From Nitrospira sp. (lineage in GTDB: Bacteria; Nitrospirota; Nitrospiria; Nitrospirales; Nitrospiraceae): 38,077 bases of DNA. The stretch covers positions 1-38,077 of the forward strand of contig JABFSU010000064.1 of NCBI GenBank assembly GCA_013140455.1, read 5' to 3'. Within the stretch, counting starts at the first letter, position 1. Every line of letters begins with the position of its first letter. The notes beneath the pieces are model-generated. The model did no database searches and was not told where the DNA came from. It saw only the letters and a list, made by a program, of their open reading frames with translations. Shown here in pieces: positions 6,085 to 16,017 of the stretch. Position numbers and translations under genes: made by a program.

Positions 6085-7428
6085 TCACTGTTTCAGCACG
6101 CATTTTTCGTACAAGTCTTTCAGCTTTGCCGTGGGATCGTATCGTGCTTTGAGTGCTCGGTAGGCTGGCTCGTTGTACAACTGCCAGAAATCTTCGCGTG
6201 AATAGTAGGCAGTCGAGTACAGCGATTTCTTGCCGTATAGCTCCCGGACCTTGGCTTCGACTTTCTTGTCGAAATACCCGTCCTCATGATCGGTGCTCAC
6301 GGCATCCCAGAATCCAAAGTTCACATAGAGCTTCCCGGGAGTCATCGGGTACAGCGGATACGAGGCTGACGGATCATAGGCCATGACCGGACAGATCCAT
6401 ACCGGCGTGATCCCGATCTCGCGGTTAAAAAACCTGGCAAACTCCGCTGCATGCTCAAGCGGGATTTCGACGTCCTGAATCACGGCCTCCTGCCGGCCGG
6501 TCAGCGCTTTGGCCACCCGTTGCGCGAGGGGCGAACGGTTGAATTTGTTTCGAAGCTTCCAATACACCGTCGAACAGAGACGCTTCCTGCCCCAGAGCCA
6601 TCTCACTACAGGACGCTGGACGAAGAAATGCTTTGAGCACCAGAACCAGTCGGTGTCCCATCGCCACAGGTAGTCGTGGATCGTCAGATAATCGACGGTT
6701 TTCTGCTGGATCGATCGATAATAGATAGAACGATAGGTGTAATCGCTGAGCCATTCGGCCCGGTCGACACACTTGCCTGTCGTGAGATAGAGCTCCTGCT
6801 CATCGAACATCGTACCGTCAACAAAATCCCCCTGCCTGTCCTGGCATACGCGCCCTAGCGCGCGAAAATAGGTATCCAGATCTGAGTATCGCTCGTGCCG
6901 GAGCCGGACGAATTTCTCAACGGGGACAAGCTGCACTTTCACTTTGAGCGCATAGCCCAGCGTGCCGTAGGAATTCGCAAAGCCGAAGAACAGATCTCTA
7001 TGTGCATTGTCTTTTGCAGCGGCGACGACCGTGCCGTCAGGCAGGAGGATGTCCATTTCAAGAATCGTTTCGTGCACAAAGCCATACGTGAACGAGGAGG
7101 ACTCGATACCCACTCCAGCCAAGGCCCCGCCGATGGTAATCGACTTGAGCTGGGGAACGACGGCCGGCATCAACTGGAACGGCAGCGTTTCACGTACCAA
7201 GTCCTCGTAGGTCGTCATCCCTTCGACTTCGGCAACCCGCGCCTGCACATCAACGTGAATCACCTGATTGAAGTGGCGCACATCCAGCTTGTGCCGCGGC
7301 TCTGGAATTCGTTGCCGGAACAGATTGGAGGTTGTCTTTTCGAGGGCGAGGGCTCCGGTCTGATTTGAAGCGCGAAGGAATTGGGCGACTGCCTCCCGCT
7401 TTCGCACGTACTCGTCAGGCGAAATCAT
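6085..7428 (-). CDS. FAD-binding oxidoreductase, DHCR24/TmsA-like
   Basis: A 447-residue flavoprotein of the FAD_binding_4 (VAO) class. The FAD domain is seen from KTTSNLFRQR through VIHVDVQARVAEVEGMTTYE to PQLKSITIGGALAGVGIES and the long LLPDGTVVAA strand; these are shared with delta-24 sterol reductase and with TmsA-type flavoproteins. The gene starts five bases after the CFA-synthase-type gene. That pairing is known in actinobacteria (TmsB methylates an unsaturated fatty acyl chain, TmsA reduces the methylene product to a methyl branch). By analogy this protein may reduce a methylene-acyl lipid. The reductase role is inference; FAD binding is well supported. Confidence 0.85.
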   Translation of the reverse strand: MISPDEYVRKREAVAQFLRASNQTGALALEKTTSNLFRQRIPEPRHKLDVRHFNQVIHVDVQARVAEVEGMTTYEDLVRETLPFQLMPAVVPQLKSITIGGALAGVGIESSSFTYGFVHETILEMDILLPDGTVVAAAKDNAHRDLFFGFANSYGTLGYALKVKVQLVPVEKFVRLRHERYSDLDTYFRALGRVCQDRQGDFVDGTMFDEQELYLTTGKCVDRAEWLSDYTYRSIYYRSIQQKTVDYLTIHDYLWRWDTDWFWCSKHFFVQRPVVRWLWGRKRLCSTVYWKLRNKFNRSPLAQRVAKALTGRQEAVIQDVEIPLEHAAEFARFFNREIGITPVWICPVMAYDPSASYPLYPMTPGKLYVNFGFWDAVSTDHEDGYFDKKVEAKVRELYGKKSLYSTAYYSREDFWQLYNEPAYRALKARYDPTAKLKDLYEKCVLKQ

Positions 7429-7433
7429 GACCG

Positions 7434-8543
7434 TTACCGTACTGATTCATAGCCACCCAACAGGCCATGCTTCGACATGACGATCTGCCAGAGATGGATG
7501 GTGCGGGCGCGGAAGGCCCCCGCGAGCGACAGCAGATAGTAACGCCACATCCGGAAAAACCGCTCGTCGAAGGTGGAGTCCCATTCCCCCCGATGCCGAT
7601 CGACATTCTCCTGCCATGCCAGCAGGGTGCGGTCATAGTCGGGACCGAAATTATGCCAGTCCTCCATGACGAAGAGTCCGTCTATCGCGGCGCCCAGTTG
7701 CGCCACCGAGGGCAACATTCCGCCAGGGAAAATGTACTTATCGAACCAGGGATCGCCGATGGTGGTCGAGGCATTATTCCCGATGCTATGGACCAACACC
7801 AAGCCATGCAGCTTCACGGTCCGGTGAGCCACTTCCATGAGCGTGCGGTAATTCTTAAATCCCACGTGCTCGCAAATGCCAATGGCGGCAACCTTGTCGA
7901 ATTCCCCGCTTGCGTCACGATAGTCGCTGTGCCGGATTTCAACCGGAAGCCCGGCACACCAGCGACGCGCATAGGCCACCTGCTGTTCGGAAATATTGTA
8001 GGCCACCACCGAACAGCCATAGTTGGCGGCAGCGAACCTGGCAAACCCTCCCCACCCGCAGCCCAGCTCCAGCACCCGCTCGCCCTTCTTGAGCTGCAGT
8101 TTGCGACAGATCAAATCCAGCTTGTGCTCCTGCGCCTCCGCCAGTGTGTGCGCCTGCTTCCAATAGGCACAGGTGTATTGCATCTGCGGGCCGAGCATCT
8201 GTTCGTAAAACTCGTTGCTCAAGTCATAGTGGCATTGCGCAACCCGTTTCGAGCGGTCCTTATCCTGCAGATTGAACAGGCGAGCCTTGAACGTATTCAG
8301 GAGGAGATGCTTATTGTGCACGGCTTTGTCGAGTTCGGCAGAGTCAACCAGGAAAAAGAACTCGTCCAGTTGCCTGGCATCCCACCAGCCGTCTATGTAG
8401 GACTCCCCGAGTCCAAGCGAACCCTCGGCAAAGACGCGCTTATAGAATCGGTCATCATGGATCAGGATATCCCCAGGATCAGACCCGCCAATGTGCACGT
8501 GGGCCCGTTCGAGTAATTCCTGAATCGTATGTTGTGGGTTCAT
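7434..8543 (-). CDS. cfa: Cyclopropane-fatty-acyl-phospholipid synthase family methyltransferase
   Basis: A 369-residue SAM-dependent lipid methyltransferase that matches E. coli Cfa along its whole length. It has an N-terminal lipid-binding region (EGSLGLGESYIDGWW), MQYTCAYW, the SAM loop VLELGCGWGGFARF, and DPWFDKYIFPGGMLPS. Residues C125, E225, H252, I254 and Y303 line up with the E. coli active-site set C139, E239, H266, I268 and Y317 at a constant offset of 14, so the bicarbonate/active site is intact. It methylates double bonds in phospholipid acyl chains; the product may be a cyclopropane or, with the flavoprotein next door, a methyl branch. GAGGAGCC precedes the ATG. The desaturase lies 139 bases upstream. 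Confidence 0.93.
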   Translation of the reverse strand: MNPQHTIQELLERAHVHIGGSDPGDILIHDDRFYKRVFAEGSLGLGESYIDGWWDARQLDEFFFLVDSAELDKAVHNKHLLLNTFKARLFNLQDKDRSKRVAQCHYDLSNEFYEQMLGPQMQYTCAYWKQAHTLAEAQEHKLDLICRKLQLKKGERVLELGCGWGGFARFAAANYGCSVVAYNISEQQVAYARRWCAGLPVEIRHSDYRDASGEFDKVAAIGICEHVGFKNYRTLMEVAHRTVKLHGLVLVHSIGNNASTTIGDPWFDKYIFPGGMLPSVAQLGAAIDGLFVMEDWHNFGPDYDRTLLAWQENVDRHRGEWDSTFDERFFRMWRYYLLSLAGAFRARTIHLWQIVMSKHGLLGGYESVR

Positions 8544-8682
8544 AGCGAGGCTCCTCGTTCATCCCGCCTCGTTGATGGATGAACGCGTGCAGGTCACACC
8601 AACCCTCCCTCGCCTGACTCACGAGTGACCGTTGATGCGAGCACGAGAAGATCAACCGCACGACTACACGACCCCGGAGTAC

Positions 8683-9543
8683 CTAGTTGCCGGGAGCGTA
8701 GATCTTGGCCTTGATGTGATCGGGAGGGGTTCGGAGATCCCACACAATCCGGAACCAGGACAGCAGGATCAAGAGATAATAGGAAAAGTCTATCTCCCAC
8801 CAGCGCCATCCCTGATTGACCGACGACTGATAGTAGTGATGGTTGTTGTGCCACCCTTCCCCACAACAGAGGATAGCCAGAATGAAGCTATTTCGGCTGC
8901 CATCGCGGGAGTCGTATCGCACACGGCCGACGATGTGGGTCAGTGAGTTGATAAAGAAGGTGCAATGATAGAGCACGGTCGTGGATATGAAGAATCCCCA
9001 GATGAGTCCGGGAAACCCCCACACCATATAGATCAGCAGTGCATACAAAAACGGCGGGACATAGTGAAACCGGTTGAGGAGGCGCAACTCCGGATATTTC
9101 AGCAAATCCTTCACGACGGCGAACTCTGTCCGATCGTATTCGTTGGTCAAGAGCCATCCGACATGGGAGTACCAAAACCCTCGCTGTACAGGGGAGTGTC
9201 GATCTAGGGCCTGATCGGAGTGTTTGTGGTGATGCCGATGGTGGGCGGCCCACCACAACACCCCCTTCTGCGCCGACGTCATGGCACACACGGCCAAGAG
9301 AAATTGAAAGACCCGGCCGGTTTTATAGGAGCGATGGGAAAAGTAGCGGTGATACCCTGCGGTGATGGCCAACATCCTCAGGTAATAACTGGCAATCGCC
9401 AGGAGAACCAACTCAAGGCTGATTCCGGTCTGGATCGCCCACAGGCCCATCAGATGAACAAGAAAGAATGGGATTGCGGTGGCCCATTGAATAGTCTCCG
9501 ATCCAGACTGAGAACTGGTAGAATCGCCGGATAGTCTAGGCAT
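8683..9543 (-). CDS. Fatty acid desaturase (membrane di-iron, acyl-CoA delta-9 type)
   Basis: A 286-residue integral membrane desaturase. All three His boxes are present: HRYFSH (65-70), HHRHHHKH (101-108) and WHNNHH (231-236), plus a His in FFINSLTH (202). Hydrophobic spans lie around residues 23-60, 77-90 and 160-200, as in stearoyl-CoA desaturases. It would insert a cis double bond in C16/C18 acyl chains, using iron, oxygen and an electron donor not encoded here. It is the first gene of the minus-strand lipid set and could supply the unsaturated substrate for the methyltransferase downstream. A plausible promoter and a palindrome lie in its leader. Confidence 0.93.
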   Translation of the reverse strand: MPRLSGDSTSSQSGSETIQWATAIPFFLVHLMGLWAIQTGISLELVLLAIASYYLRMLAITAGYHRYFSHRSYKTGRVFQFLLAVCAMTSAQKGVLWWAAHHRHHHKHSDQALDRHSPVQRGFWYSHVGWLLTNEYDRTEFAVVKDLLKYPELRLLNRFHYVPPFLYALLIYMVWGFPGLIWGFFISTTVLYHCTFFINSLTHIVGRVRYDSRDGSRNSFILAILCCGEGWHNNHHYYQSSVNQGWRWWEIDFSYYLLILLSWFRIVWDLRTPPDHIKAKIYAPGN

Positions 9544-12254: not shown

Positions 12255-15200
12255 TCAGCAATCCCGATTTCGAGCTCTCCAGCAACACGCACCGAGCGTC
12301 AACAGCAGTACGATCGGCATCATCGCATCGTTCGAGCCAGCCTGCGCAATTGTACAACCTCCTCCACCACCAGAAGAACCCTGAGAGCCTCCACCTCCTG
12401 AAACTGGACCGTCAAACGACGCAGTCACGGTGGCAGCCGTATTCACGACGCAGAGGCCGACTCCCGTGCAACCACCGCCGCTCCAACCGAGAAATGTAGA
12501 GCTTGAATTCGCGGTCGCCGCAAGAGTCACCGTAGTGCCATCCTGAAAATTACTGCTGCAGGTCGCACCGCAGTTAATTCCCGCCGGAGTTGACGTGACT
12601 GTTCCTGATCCGGTTCCCACCGTTGCCACCAAAACATTGAAGGTATTCGGCGGCGGAGGAAGTGCGAAAGTTGCCGTCACTGTCGCATCACCGGTGACCT
12701 GACAGGTTCCTGTGCCGACGCAATTGCCCCCGTTCCACCCGGAGAACACGGACCCGGCCGCAGGGGTCGCGGTGAGTGTCACGGTGGTGCCTTGGCTGAA
12801 TTGATCCGTACAGGTTACTCCGCAGTTGACGCCCCCATTGTTCCCCGGCGGTGCAGACGTCACGGTTCCGCCTCCAGCCCCGCTTTTTGACACCTCCACG
12901 GTAAACGGTGCCGGCGGCGCCAACGTGAAGGTCGCCGTCACTGTCGCATCACCGGTGACCTGACAGGTTCCTGTGCCGACGCAATTGCCCCCGTTCCACC
13001 CGGAGAACACGGACCCGGCCGCAGGGGTCGCGGTGAGTGTCACGGTGGTGCCTTGGCTGAATTGATCCGTACAGGTTACTCCGCAGTTGACGCCCCCATT
13101 GTTCCCCGGCGGTGCAGACGTCACGGTTCCGCCTCCAGCCCCGCTTTTTGACACCTCCACGGTAAACGGTGCCGGCGGCGCCAACGTGAAGGTTGCCGTG
13201 ACGCTAGCGGTCGTGGACAGTGAGCACGTGCCGATACCGGCGCACCCGGCCCCACTCCATCCTAAAAATACTGATCCAGGAGCAGGAGTAGCCGTCAGCG
13301 TCGCGCTCGCTCCTGCGGAAAACTGGAAATTGCAGGTGGCACCGCAGTTGATCCCATTCGGTGCCGATGTGACCGCCCCCAAACCAGTCCCCGCCTTATT
13401 GACGGTGACCGCAAACGCACTGACGCTGTCGAGCGCCGCACGAGCATTGAGCCGACGGCCAGTCAGAGTTTTTCCAGCAAGCGAGGGGAGCACATCGCCA
13501 GTATTGATGATGGCATTGCGGATCTGCGCCACCGTTAGACTTGGATTGACGGAAAGGAGAAGCCCGACGACGCCCGTCACGTGTGCGGTAGCCGACGAAG
13601 TGCCGCCCGTGAAACCATAGTCAGTCGCTCCAGAGGGAGGCCCCGACACGCAGTCAACACGCAGATTGTCAAGATACGCACCGTCATCGGTGCCTGTAGC
13701 GTCCGAGAAGAAGTTGATCCGGAAGCGAGCGGACAGGTTGCCATCGCGTATTTCTTCCAGGGGATCGTTCTTGAATAAGCCGGCCGAGGAGGAGGTAAAC
13801 TTGTTCCCGGTTGTCCACGTCGTGCCTCCATCTCCGGAAGCTTGTACCAGGATACCGTCACCATTGCCGGCAGAAGCCAGGCGCACATCGCCGATCAACA
13901 GACAGCCATGCCGACCAGCCGTACTAAAGACCGGACCCGTGGCAAATGAATTGGTACTGTTTAGATAGTTACCCCCCGGACTGTCCGTGAGGCTGTTCGG
14001 AGGACTCGCAGCTTGCGTATTGGTGAAGGCCCAACCACTATTGGTCCCGCTGAAGGCATACCCCAATCCGGCAGGGTTCGAATCAAAATCGTGGAGAAGG
14101 ACGTTGGTGACATTCTGAGTCGGGTACGTACTATAGGTCTCATCGGTCCCAGGCGCTGCGATTTGAACGGAGGTTGCGCCAAAATTCGAAAAATACGACA
14201 GGCCGTCGTTCTGGTTCGTCGCAGCCACCGCGATGACGTTCGGCAGAGCAGGCCCGCACGGAGTCGCCACGCTGTACTGCGCCGGGTACCATGGCACCAG
14301 TTCGTTGTCCTGAGCATTGTTACCGGCGGCAGCAAGGACCATAATGCCCGCCACGTTGGCGGCACTCAGCATGTTGTACTCTGCCTGACTGCACGCTCCC
14401 CCAAGCCTTCCAAAACTAGCATTGATGACGCGGGCGCCATTTGCGATTGCATAGTTGCCTGCCGGAATGAACCCGGCGGCTGTCACGTGTTCAAACGCTA
14501 CCCCGCTTCCTGCTTTGAGAGCCATGAGTTTTGCTGTCCGCATAACGCCGGTTATGCCGAGACTATTATTCCCTGCCGCTGCCATAGTGCCTGACAACCC
14601 CGTCCCATGCCCCAGCATGCCAGTGGGAAAGTGCACCACGTCCATCGGGTCGCTATCGTTATTGGAAAAGTCATATCCATAATAATCATCCACGTAACCG
14701 TTTCCGTCGTTATCAACACCGTCATTCGGTATTTCTCCAGGGTTCGTCCACATGTTAGGGGCAAGATCTGGATGGTCGTAGGCAATCCCTGTATCGATAA
14801 CCGCAATAACTACGTTGGGACTGCCGGTAGTAACGTCCCAGGCTTCCGCGGCGTGGATATCGGCACCAGCAGTGCCCGTCACACCTCGAACCGTCTGACC
14901 CGTGTTATGAAGCCCCCATAACTGGCTGAACAGTGGGTCATTAGGAACACCGGCTAGTTCATAGAGGTAATTCGGTTCAGCATACTCAACAGCAGGGTCT
15001 TGCCGATAGGTTGCAATGGCATCTTCGACCGAGACTCCCTTCCCCAGCTTGAGATGCTGCAACCGATGGGAGCCTGCGGTGAACGACTTCATCGCATGGG
15101 TGCCTGTCTTTGTTTCGGCAGCTGCAATGGTGGCAGCCGATGCTCCATCGCGGAACTTGACGATCACTTCTCCGTCCTTGAATCGGCCATGCACTTTGTG

Positions 15201-15386
15201 ACCACCAGAAATGGCTGCGAAGCCATGATCTTGGCGGGTGATACGAGCGGTCTCTGCACTGGCCCAGACACACCAGAGTGTGGAAAATGCCACTAGCGAG
15301 CACAGGCTTACCCAGGTCGCCTGTTTTCTCCGCCAAAAGTTACCGATAGTATCGTTGAACCTAGAACATGACCTTCGGCTCGCCAT
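12255..15386 (-). CDS. Secreted S8 (subtilisin-like) protease with bacterial repeats and C-terminal sorting tail
   Basis: A 1043-residue exported protease. The ATG at 15386 is chosen over an upstream GTG because GGAG lies nearby and a signal peptide ending in ASA follows. A propeptide-like region (about 70-145) precedes the catalytic domain, with Asp198 (VIDTG), His260 (GHGTG), oxyanion Asn356 (AAAGNN) and Ser597 (GGTSSATA). Between Asn and Ser about 150 residues are inserted (429-579), with a jelly-roll look. Four repeats with paired cysteines (NCG-TC, then GxGxC) follow from about 658; repeats 2 and 3 are identical. The tail is Gly-rich with GGGCTIAQ, a hydrophobic segment and WRARNR. It is probably surface-anchored, with a CPBP protease encoded downstream. 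Confidence 0.93.
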   Translation of the reverse strand: MASRRSCSRFNDTIGNFWRRKQATWVSLCSLVAFSTLWCVWASAETARITRQDHGFAAISGGHKVHGRFKDGEVIVKFRDGASAATIAAAETKTGTHAMKSFTAGSHRLQHLKLGKGVSVEDAIATYRQDPAVEYAEPNYLYELAGVPNDPLFSQLWGLHNTGQTVRGVTGTAGADIHAAEAWDVTTGSPNVVIAVIDTGIAYDHPDLAPNMWTNPGEIPNDGVDNDGNGYVDDYYGYDFSNNDSDPMDVVHFPTGMLGHGTGLSGTMAAAGNNSLGITGVMRTAKLMALKAGSGVAFEHVTAAGFIPAGNYAIANGARVINASFGRLGGACSQAEYNMLSAANVAGIMVLAAAGNNAQDNELVPWYPAQYSVATPCGPALPNVIAVAATNQNDGLSYFSNFGATSVQIAAPGTDETYSTYPTQNVTNVLLHDFDSNPAGLGYAFSGTNSGWAFTNTQAASPPNSLTDSPGGNYLNSTNSFATGPVFSTAGRHGCLLIGDVRLASAGNGDGILVQASGDGGTTWTTGNKFTSSSAGLFKNDPLEEIRDGNLSARFRINFFSDATGTDDGAYLDNLRVDCVSGPPSGATDYGFTGGTSSATAHVTGVVGLLLSVNPSLTVAQIRNAIINTGDVLPSLAGKTLTGRRLNARAALDSVSAFAVTVNKAGTGLGAVTSAPNGINCGATCNFQFSAGASATLTATPAPGSVFLGWSGAGCAGIGTCSLSTTASVTATFTLAPPAPFTVEVSKSGAGGGTVTSAPPGNNGGVNCGVTCTDQFSQGTTVTLTATPAAGSVFSGWNGGNCVGTGTCQVTGDATVTATFTLAPPAPFTVEVSKSGAGGGTVTSAPPGNNGGVNCGVTCTDQFSQGTTVTLTATPAAGSVFSGWNGGNCVGTGTCQVTGDATVTATFALPPPPNTFNVLVATVGTGSGTVTSTPAGINCGATCSSNFQDGTTVTLAATANSSSTFLGWSGGGCTGVGLCVVNTAATVTASFDGPVSGGGGSQGSSGGGGGCTIAQAGSNDAMMPIVLLLTLGACCWRARNRDC
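12673..13194. repeat. Two tandem 261-bp copies inside the S8 protease gene
   Basis: Copy 1 (12673-12933) and copy 2 (12934-13194) are identical except for the last base (C versus T). The unit is 87 codons, so copy number can change without breaking the frame. Flanking repeats of the same domain family are clearly diverged in DNA, so this pair is a recent duplication or is kept alike by recombination. Confidence 0.97.
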
Positions 15387-16017
15387 TATTGATCTCCAAA
15401 ACCGTCTGGAAAGAAAAGACACACTTGCCGGAATAAGGGGAATCCTTCTTGCACAGTCAGCCCTGCGCATCTTCTGACTAACCACTACAGAAACCGTCCT
15501 TCATGATAGGAGACGCCCTACTTCAACAGCTCTCTAATGTTTTGAAGAGTACCAAGATTGATAACAGGTTAGTACCCCCTCTTCCGAGGAGACAGAGCTT
15601 CTCCAAGAGGGGGGGAGTGCTGCAAGGACATTCTCGAGAGACGTCCTAATAGAGACATCCTCCCATGAATAAGAAGGTAGCTGCGGTCATCAGGCGGTTC
15701 TGAGCCATCCACCTCGTCTTTCTGGGCAAGCACCTCCTAGCGGTCAAAAACTTGGCCGAGTTCGTTAATAGTCCAAGGTTGCGAATCCGAACATCGCCTC
15801 ACGGTCTCCCCTTGTCCCAAACTGTTGAGGCCTGTTCCCGATTGTTACTGCCTATGCAACTATCTGAAATAGTTTATCTTTCAGCCACCAAATCCAAACA
15901 ACCATCCCCTTGATCCACACAGGGGAAACAACTCAACAGGCCCTCCAATCCAGCGGTTTACGATATTTTTTCAAGTGCTACATTTAATAGTGAGCCCTTA
16001 GCTAATGCCTAAGAAAT
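15387..16017. other. Divergent intergenic region between S8 protease and beta-barrel-like gene
   Basis: About 630 bases with no supported gene. It should hold the promoters of both divergent genes, but I cannot assign them with confidence. The clearest structure is an inverted repeat at 15575-15613. Confidence 0.5.
15575..15613. repeat. Inverted repeat with 9-bp perfect arms
   Basis: CCCCCTCTT (15575-15583) pairs perfectly with AAGAGGGGG (15605-15613); the 21-base interior can pair further (GGAG with CTCC). No T run follows on either strand, so it is not a standard terminator. It could be a leader structure or a protein-binding site. Confidence 0.5.

What the first reader, a model, noticed from the sequence alone, without database searches (positions are those of the whole stretch)
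6085..9543. Possible pathway for mid-chain methyl-branched fatty acids
A desaturase, a CFA-type methyltransferase with its full active site, and a DHCR24/TmsA-like flavoprotein lie together on one strand; the last two are five bases apart. In actinobacteria TmsB plus TmsA make 10-methyl fatty acids from oleate. Nitrospira species are known for 11-methyl-hexadecanoate and cis-7/cis-11 hexadecenoate, whose genes I do not know to be assigned. Here the methyltransferase is much closer to E. coli Cfa than expected for TmsB, so the route may have arisen independently.
Basis: partly seen in the sequence, partly recalled or inferred. Interest (0 to 1): 0.75.

Follow-up and report, generated by a model that had tools for sequence, protein, structure and literature searches.

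The report
Nitrospira operon for methyl-branched fatty acids
Some Nitrospira carry a three-gene operon (desaturase, methyltransferase, reductase) that very probably makes mid-chain methyl-branched membrane fatty acids: the reductase belongs to the family known from actinobacteria, but its partner methyltransferase was recruited from the E. coli-type cyclopropane synthase and carries altered active-site neighbours that recur in unrelated methyltransferases of such pathways.

Summary
Window 6085-9543 (- strand) encodes an acyl desaturase, an E. coli-type Cfa and a flavoprotein, with 139 and 5 bp gaps. The pair Cfa + flavoprotein is intact in 17 other Nitrospiraceae genomes, always in this order with a 4-5 bp gap; in two genomes both are lost together while the desaturase stays. 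The flavoprotein is a true BfaA/TmsA relative: 51% identical over its full length to Thermomonospora curvata BfaA, whose operon is experimentally proven. So the route did not arise wholly independently: only the methyltransferase half is a separate recruitment. It sits inside the E. coli Cfa clade (33% identical to T. curvata BfaB) in a subclade made only of BfaA-linked enzymes. New here: all 83 BfaA-linked methyltransferases, from several lineages, have Thr at E. coli Ser138 and lack Phe238, the neighbours of catalytic Cys139 and Glu239. Every solved synthase aligned has Ser/Phe. Three further Cfas with this signature proved to be followed by a TmpA-like reductase. Not supported: that this operon explains the 11-methyl-hexadecanoate of N. 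moscoviensis, whose genome lacks BfaA. The pure cultures N. japonica NJ1 and strain KM1 carry the operon, so the prediction is testable now. Product and regiochemistry remain unproven.

The parts
8683..9543 (-). membrane acyl desaturase (DES), 286 aa, SCD1/DesC-like, three histidine boxes; presumed source of the monounsaturated substrate
   Evidence: PF00487; acyl-CoA desaturase 4ymk E 9e-33
7434..8543 (-). E. coli Cfa-type SAM methyltransferase, 369 aa; predicted to make a methylene branch rather than a cyclopropane
   Evidence: NF008686 533 bits, cut-off 400; 6bqc E 1e-114; tree
6085..7428 (-). BfaA/TmsA-family FAD reductase, 447 aa, VAO/PCMH fold
   Evidence: PF01565; 51% to T. curvata BfaA; DprE1 Z 28.9, rmsd 3.0, 356 aligned
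7429..7433 (-). 5-bp gap between Cfa stop and flavoprotein start, 4-5 bp in all Nitrospiraceae copies: co-transcription, probably translational coupling
8551..8556 (-). Shine-Dalgarno GAGGAG before the Cfa start
   Evidence: read from sequence
8169..8174 (-). codons T124-C125 (E. coli S138-C139): signature Thr beside the catalytic Cys
7869..7874 (-). codons C224-E225 (E. coli F238-E239): signature loss of Phe beside the bicarbonate-binding Glu

Best explanation
A bfa-type mid-chain methyl-branched fatty acid operon. The desaturase supplies cis-monounsaturated acyl chains. The Cfa-type enzyme transfers a methyl from SAM to the cis double bond of phospholipid acyl chains but, with the altered pocket around C125/E225, lets the cation lose its proton as a methylene branch instead of closing a cyclopropane ring. 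The BfaA-family flavoprotein reduces that methylene to a methyl branch with reduced flavin (NADPH in T. curvata). Shown here: gene content, conserved order and co-loss, family membership of the flavoprotein, placement and residue signature of the methyltransferase. Inferred: the chemistry, substrate chain and branch position (C16 with a Delta9-11 double bond is the guess).
For: (1) The flavoprotein is 51% identical over 449 columns (E 1e-151) to the BfaA of T. curvata (genome identified by exact length 5,639,016 bp, PMC3072092), whose operon turns oleate into 10-methylstearate in E. coli (PMC7791843). (2) BfaA homologues lie next to a same-strand CMAS gene in 66 of 80 loci. (3) The pair is kept with a 4-5 bp gap in 17 other Nitrospiraceae genomes and lost together in G025 and G364 while the desaturase remains. 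(4) The methyltransferase has Thr at E. coli 138 and no Phe at 238, as do all 83 BfaA-linked CMAS; unlinked: 47/52 Ser138, 39/52 Phe238; the five solved synthases aligned are all Ser/Phe. On a tree built without these columns, 4 of 4 supported independent contrasts go the same way. (5) Outside the discovery set, the three unlinked Cfas with the signature (L270-L272) are directly followed by a geranylgeranyl-reductase-type flavoprotein as in tmpBA; no other unlinked Cfa locus has one.
Against: No biochemistry. The methyltransferase scores above the NCBIfam cut-off for cyclopropane synthase. The signature was found post hoc, rests on only 4-5 independent origins (best possible sign-test p 0.125) and linkage is a proxy for product. 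N. moscoviensis, the best-known methyl-branched Nitrospira, lacks the gene pair. TmpA reductases, the nearest functional analogue, were inactive in E. coli (PMC7791843).
Confidence: 0.78

Rival explanations
1. The methyltransferase is an ordinary cyclopropane fatty acid synthase and the flavoprotein does something else (another lipid or a redox function).
For: It is above the NF008686 cyclopropane-synthase cut-off, in the E. coli Cfa clade, with the full catalytic set.
Against: Its subclade consists only of BfaA-linked enzymes (99/99); it has lost Phe238 and gained Thr138 like the BfaB enzymes; the two genes are lost together; stand-alone Cfas keep Phe238 in 23/23.
Confidence: 0.12
2. The pair makes unsaturated methyl acids (11-methyl-12-ene type) and the flavoprotein oxidises further, as in the furan fatty acid (Ufa) pathway.
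For: UfaM also methylates cis-vaccenate without forming a ring (PMC7380195); VAO-fold flavoproteins are often oxidases.
Against: UfaD is described as akin to phytoene dehydrogenases/desaturases (PMC7380195), a family different from the FAD_binding_4 protein here; the nearest tested relative, BfaA, is a reductase. This genome has a separate CMAS cluster with amine-oxidase, DUF1365 and DUF1295 genes that suits the furan role better.
Confidence: 0.06
3. The operon is the source of the 11-methyl-hexadecanoate marker lipid of Nitrospira in general.
For: Right lipid class and genus; one branch-forming pathway per organism would be simplest.
Against: N. moscoviensis (G060, exact genome length) makes more than 20% 11-methyl-16:0 (PMC3660363) but has no BfaA homologue and only BfaB-like CMAS. 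The operon is in only 7 of 79 genomes of its genus.
Confidence: 0.04

Closest known systems
bfaAB (tmsAB) operon of Actinomycetota (M. chlorophenolicum PMC5660069; T. curvata PMC7791843)
   Same: BfaA-family FAD reductase (51% to T. curvata) beside a SAM methyltransferase of the CMAS family; Thr138 and no Phe238 in both methyltransferases
   Different: Opposite gene order (methyltransferase first); the methyltransferase is of the E. coli Cfa clade, 33% to T. curvata BfaB; a desaturase leads the operon; Gram-negative nitrifier
tmpBA operon of Desulfobacteraceae, Marinobacter, Thiohalospira (PMC7791843)
   Same: Methyltransferase first, then flavoprotein; methylene intermediate predicted
   Different: TmpA is geranylgeranyl-reductase-like, unrelated to the FAD_binding_4 protein here
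E. coli Cfa (6bqc)
   Same: 50% identity, full catalytic set, same two-domain length
   Different: S138T and F238C equivalents beside the catalytic residues; linked to a reductase
ufaM-ufaD-ufaO furan fatty acid pathway (PMC7380195)
   Same: CMAS-family methyltransferase acting on cis-monoenes plus a flavoprotein
   Different: UfaD belongs to another flavoprotein family; no UfaO-like gene in this operon
Desaturase-CMAS-CMAS cluster of N. moscoviensis (L194)
   Same: Same genus, desaturase beside CMAS
   Different: BfaB-like methyltransferases, unrelated desaturase, no BfaA

Membership tests
bfaAB pathway | Flavoprotein homologous to BfaA over its full length | tested here: met
   51% identity, residues 5-444, to T. 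curvata BfaA; shared WRWDTDWFWC and YVNFGFW-type blocks
bfaAB pathway | Adjacent CMAS-family methyltransferase with intact bicarbonate site | tested here: met
   5 bp away; C125 E225 H252 I254 Y303
bfaAB pathway | Methyltransferase orthologous to BfaB | tested here: not met
   Falls in the E. coli Cfa clade (100/100), apart from the actinobacterial BfaB clade (100/100)
bfaAB pathway | Converts oleate or another monoene to methyl-branched acid | not testable with these tools
   needs expression and GC-MS
tmpBA pathway | TmpA-type geranylgeranyl-reductase-like flavoprotein | tested here: not met
   FAD_binding_4 only; no geranylgeranyl-reductase model among matches
Cfa cyclopropane synthase (NF008686) | Score above the curated cut-off | tested here: met
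   533 bits against 400
Cfa cyclopropane synthase (NF008686) | Phe beside the catalytic Glu (E. coli F238), kept in all stand-alone Cfas of the discovery set and in the five solved synthases aligned | tested here: not met
   C224 in the window enzyme; C or T in Nitrospira orthologues
Cfa cyclopropane synthase (NF008686) | Forms a cyclopropane ring | not testable with these tools
   needs expression
ufaMDO furan pathway | UfaD-type flavoprotein desaturase and UfaO beside the methyltransferase | tested here: not met
   flavoprotein is PF01565; downstream genes are DUF2630 and a hypothetical protein

The most novel reading that the evidence does not exclude
An E. coli-type cyclopropane synthase was converted, at least twice independently within its own clade (once beside BfaA, once beside a TmpA-like reductase), into a methylene-forming methyltransferase through the same two changes next to the catalytic Cys and Glu (S138T and loss of F238) that also mark the unrelated actinobacterial and beta/gammaproteobacterial partners. 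The two residues would then be a predictive switch between cyclopropane and methyl-branch chemistry across the CMAS family.
Probability: 0.5. Interest if true: 0.75.

Novelty: new variant of a known kind. Interest (0 to 1): 0.62.

Why it matters
It assigns genes to a probable methyl-branched lipid pathway in a major nitrifier family and says which available pure cultures (N. japonica NJ1, strain KM1) should contain the lipid. It separates this from N. moscoviensis, whose 11-methyl-hexadecanoate, a biomarker, must come from other genes (candidates named). It gives a two-residue hypothesis for what decides between cyclopropane and methyl-branched products in one of the most widespread lipid-modifying enzyme families; that is testable with a pair of point variants and would help annotate many genes now all called cyclopropane synthase.

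Tried and rejected
N. calida and Ca. N. bockiana, two further 11-methyl producers, could not be identified: V-ATPase and NrfA fingerprints were meant for the g17 genomes, two of which turned out by exact length to be N. japonica and KM1, so the gene content of calida and bockiana is untested. A reductase for N. moscoviensis near its CMAS genes: none seen (MFS transporter, glycogen debranching enzymes, kinase). Sterol (DHCR24-like) role of the flavoprotein: rejected because relatives lie beside CMAS genes in 66 of 80 loci. Fold search of the flavoprotein gave DprE1, galactonolactone dehydrogenase and cytokinin dehydrogenase: it confirms the VAO/PCMH fold but does not separate oxidase from reductase; DHCR24 did not appear among the rows shown, which excludes nothing. 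The promoter scan found no more than shuffles give. No validated TmpB or UfaM sequence could be fetched, so the signature was not checked on them. Lipid profiles of N. japonica or KM1: none found.

Full report
WHAT IS THERE. Three genes lie on the minus strand: desaturase 9543-8683, Cfa-type methyltransferase 8543-7434, flavoprotein 7428-6085. Gaps are 139 and 5 bp; the Cfa gene has a GAGGAG ribosome site. Families: FA_desaturase (nearest solved structure SCD1), CMAS / NF008686 at 533 bits, FAD_binding_4. Downstream lie a DUF2630 gene and a hypothetical gene, upstream an HNH gene on the other strand.

CONSERVATION. In the window's genus 7 of 79 genomes have the flavoprotein; in a sample of 396 Nitrospirota 18 do, all in three genera of one family. 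In 17 genomes other than the window's the pair is intact in the order Cfa-flavoprotein with a 4-5 bp gap, and in 15 the desaturase precedes it. Two genomes show deletion: G364 keeps the desaturase joined to a flavoprotein tail, G025 keeps the desaturase with scraps of the other two genes. In the 60-genome sample the window-type Cfa (80% identity or more) was found only where the flavoprotein is. So Cfa and flavoprotein behave as one unit and the desaturase can live without them.

THE FLAVOPROTEIN IS A BfaA. A scan of 84,980 species genomes returned full-length relatives at 47-56% identity in Actinomycetota, beta/gammaproteobacteria, Acidobacteriota and others. In 66 of the 80 loci kept, a CMAS gene lies beside it on the same strand. 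All 216 complete Streptosporangiaceae genomes searched have it. One of them is T. curvata (contig 5,639,016 bp; length in PMC3072092), the source of the best proven bfaAB operon (PMC7791843). Identity of the window protein to that BfaA is 51% over 449 columns; the methyltransferases share 33%. The AlphaFold model (pLDDT 88) has the VAO/PCMH fold, nearest DprE1 (Z 28.9, rmsd 3.0, 356 aligned).

THE METHYLTRANSFERASE IS A RECRUITED Cfa. In a 78-row tree the window enzyme lies in a 43-row clade with E. coli Cfa (100/100) and inside it in a 19-row subclade (99/99) whose members are all BfaA-linked: Nitrospira, Acidobacteriota, Myxococcota, Verrucomicrobiota and two probably misbinned contigs. The actinobacterial BfaB clade and the main beta/gamma partner clade are separate (each 100/100). 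The BfaA tree groups partner types similarly, with one clear swap (L102). So BfaA has been combined with at least three kinds of CMAS enzyme.

A SIGNATURE BESIDE THE CATALYTIC RESIDUES. Comparing linked with stand-alone enzymes inside the Cfa clade gave ten differing positions; two flank the catalytic C139 and E239. Thr replaces Ser138 in 19/19 linked Cfa-type enzymes and in every actinobacterial and beta/gamma partner. Phe238, present in 23/23 stand-alone Cfas, is Cys/Thr, Leu or Thr in the three groups. Over the de-duplicated set: linked 83/83 Thr138 and 0/83 Phe238; unlinked 47/52 Ser138 and 39/52 Phe238. Five solved synthases aligned to the window protein (6bqc, 7qos, 5z9o, 1kp9, 1tpy) are Ser/Phe. 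A check outside the discovery set: in an Acidobacteriota sample three Cfas without BfaA had Thr/Met; each is directly followed by a geranylgeranyl-reductase-family flavoprotein (TIGR02032; one copy frameshifted), that is, a tmpBA-like operon, while no other unlinked Cfa locus has one. Their sister L268 without a reductase is Ser/Phe. On a 90-row tree built without the two columns, 47/47 reductase-linked and 0/43 unlinked enzymes bear the signature; all 4 supported independent contrasts agree, which cannot give p below 0.125. Limits: post hoc choice, few origins, linkage used as a proxy for product.

THE NITROSPIRA LIPID LINK. Genomes were named by exact length (PMC7522533 Table 2): G060 is N. 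moscoviensis (4,589,485 bp), G232 N. japonica NJ1 (4,084,817), G265 strain KM1 (4,509,223). N. moscoviensis has more than 20% 11-methyl-16:0, as do Ca. N. bockiana and N. calida; N. defluvii lacks it and N. marina has a trace (PMC3660363). G060 has no BfaA. Its CMAS enzymes are BfaB-like (43% and 40% to T. curvata BfaB) with Ser138 and Cys/Val238, one beside an acyl-lipid desaturase and a second CMAS. So the classic 11-methyl lipid has other genes, and the window operon predicts methyl-branched acids in N. japonica and KM1, for which no profile was found.

MECHANISM. Desaturation gives the cis-alkene (inferred). Methyl transfer from SAM gives a cation; in Cfa a bicarbonate held by E239, H266 and Y317 takes a proton so that the ring closes (PMC11387697). 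With the pocket changed at 138 and 238, proton loss from the chain or methyl leaves a methylene (inferred from the signature and from BfaB and TmpB products). BfaA reduces it; NADPH is the donor in T. curvata (PMC7791843). Chain length and branch position are unknown.

VERDICT. A real, conserved operon; most likely a bfa-type pathway with a recruited Cfa. It is a new variant of a known kind; the residue signature is the part most likely to interest specialists.

Noticed in passing
L194 8674-12029 and L195 8481-9791 (N. moscoviensis genome, G060): Desaturase-CMAS-CMAS cluster and a second CMAS gene, both main CMAS enzymes 40-43% identical to T. curvata BfaB but no BfaA in the genome: candidate genes for 11-methyl-hexadecanoate with an unknown reductase.
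   Followed up: partly
L280 4523-6653, L281 8960-10917, L282 9501-11585: E. coli-type Cfa with Thr138/Met238 followed within about 10 bp by a geranylgeranyl-reductase-family flavoprotein: tmpBA-like operons in an Acidobacteriota sample; the reductase in L281 is frameshifted.
   Followed up: partly
L197 7852-15010 (own genome, contig C3): A second CMAS cluster: CMAS, DUF2878, DUF1295, amine-oxidase-type flavoprotein, DUF1365, CMAS; resembles the furan/singlet-oxygen-response gene set.
   Followed up: no
L089, L092, L093, L095, L096, L099, L100, L127, L151: Gammaproteobacterial BfaA homologues with no CMAS gene in the flanks held; in L113 and L118 only CMAS fragments remain just upstream.
   Followed up: partly
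L088, L090, L103: Contigs binned as Magasanikbacteria, Woesearchaeota and Patescibacteria carry Cfa-BfaA pairs; probably misbinned, and L103 has the reversed gene order.
   Followed up: no
window 12255-15485: S8-like serine peptidase with tandem repeated beta domains at its C-terminus and a C-terminal tail of sorting-signal type (read from the translation only).
   Followed up: no
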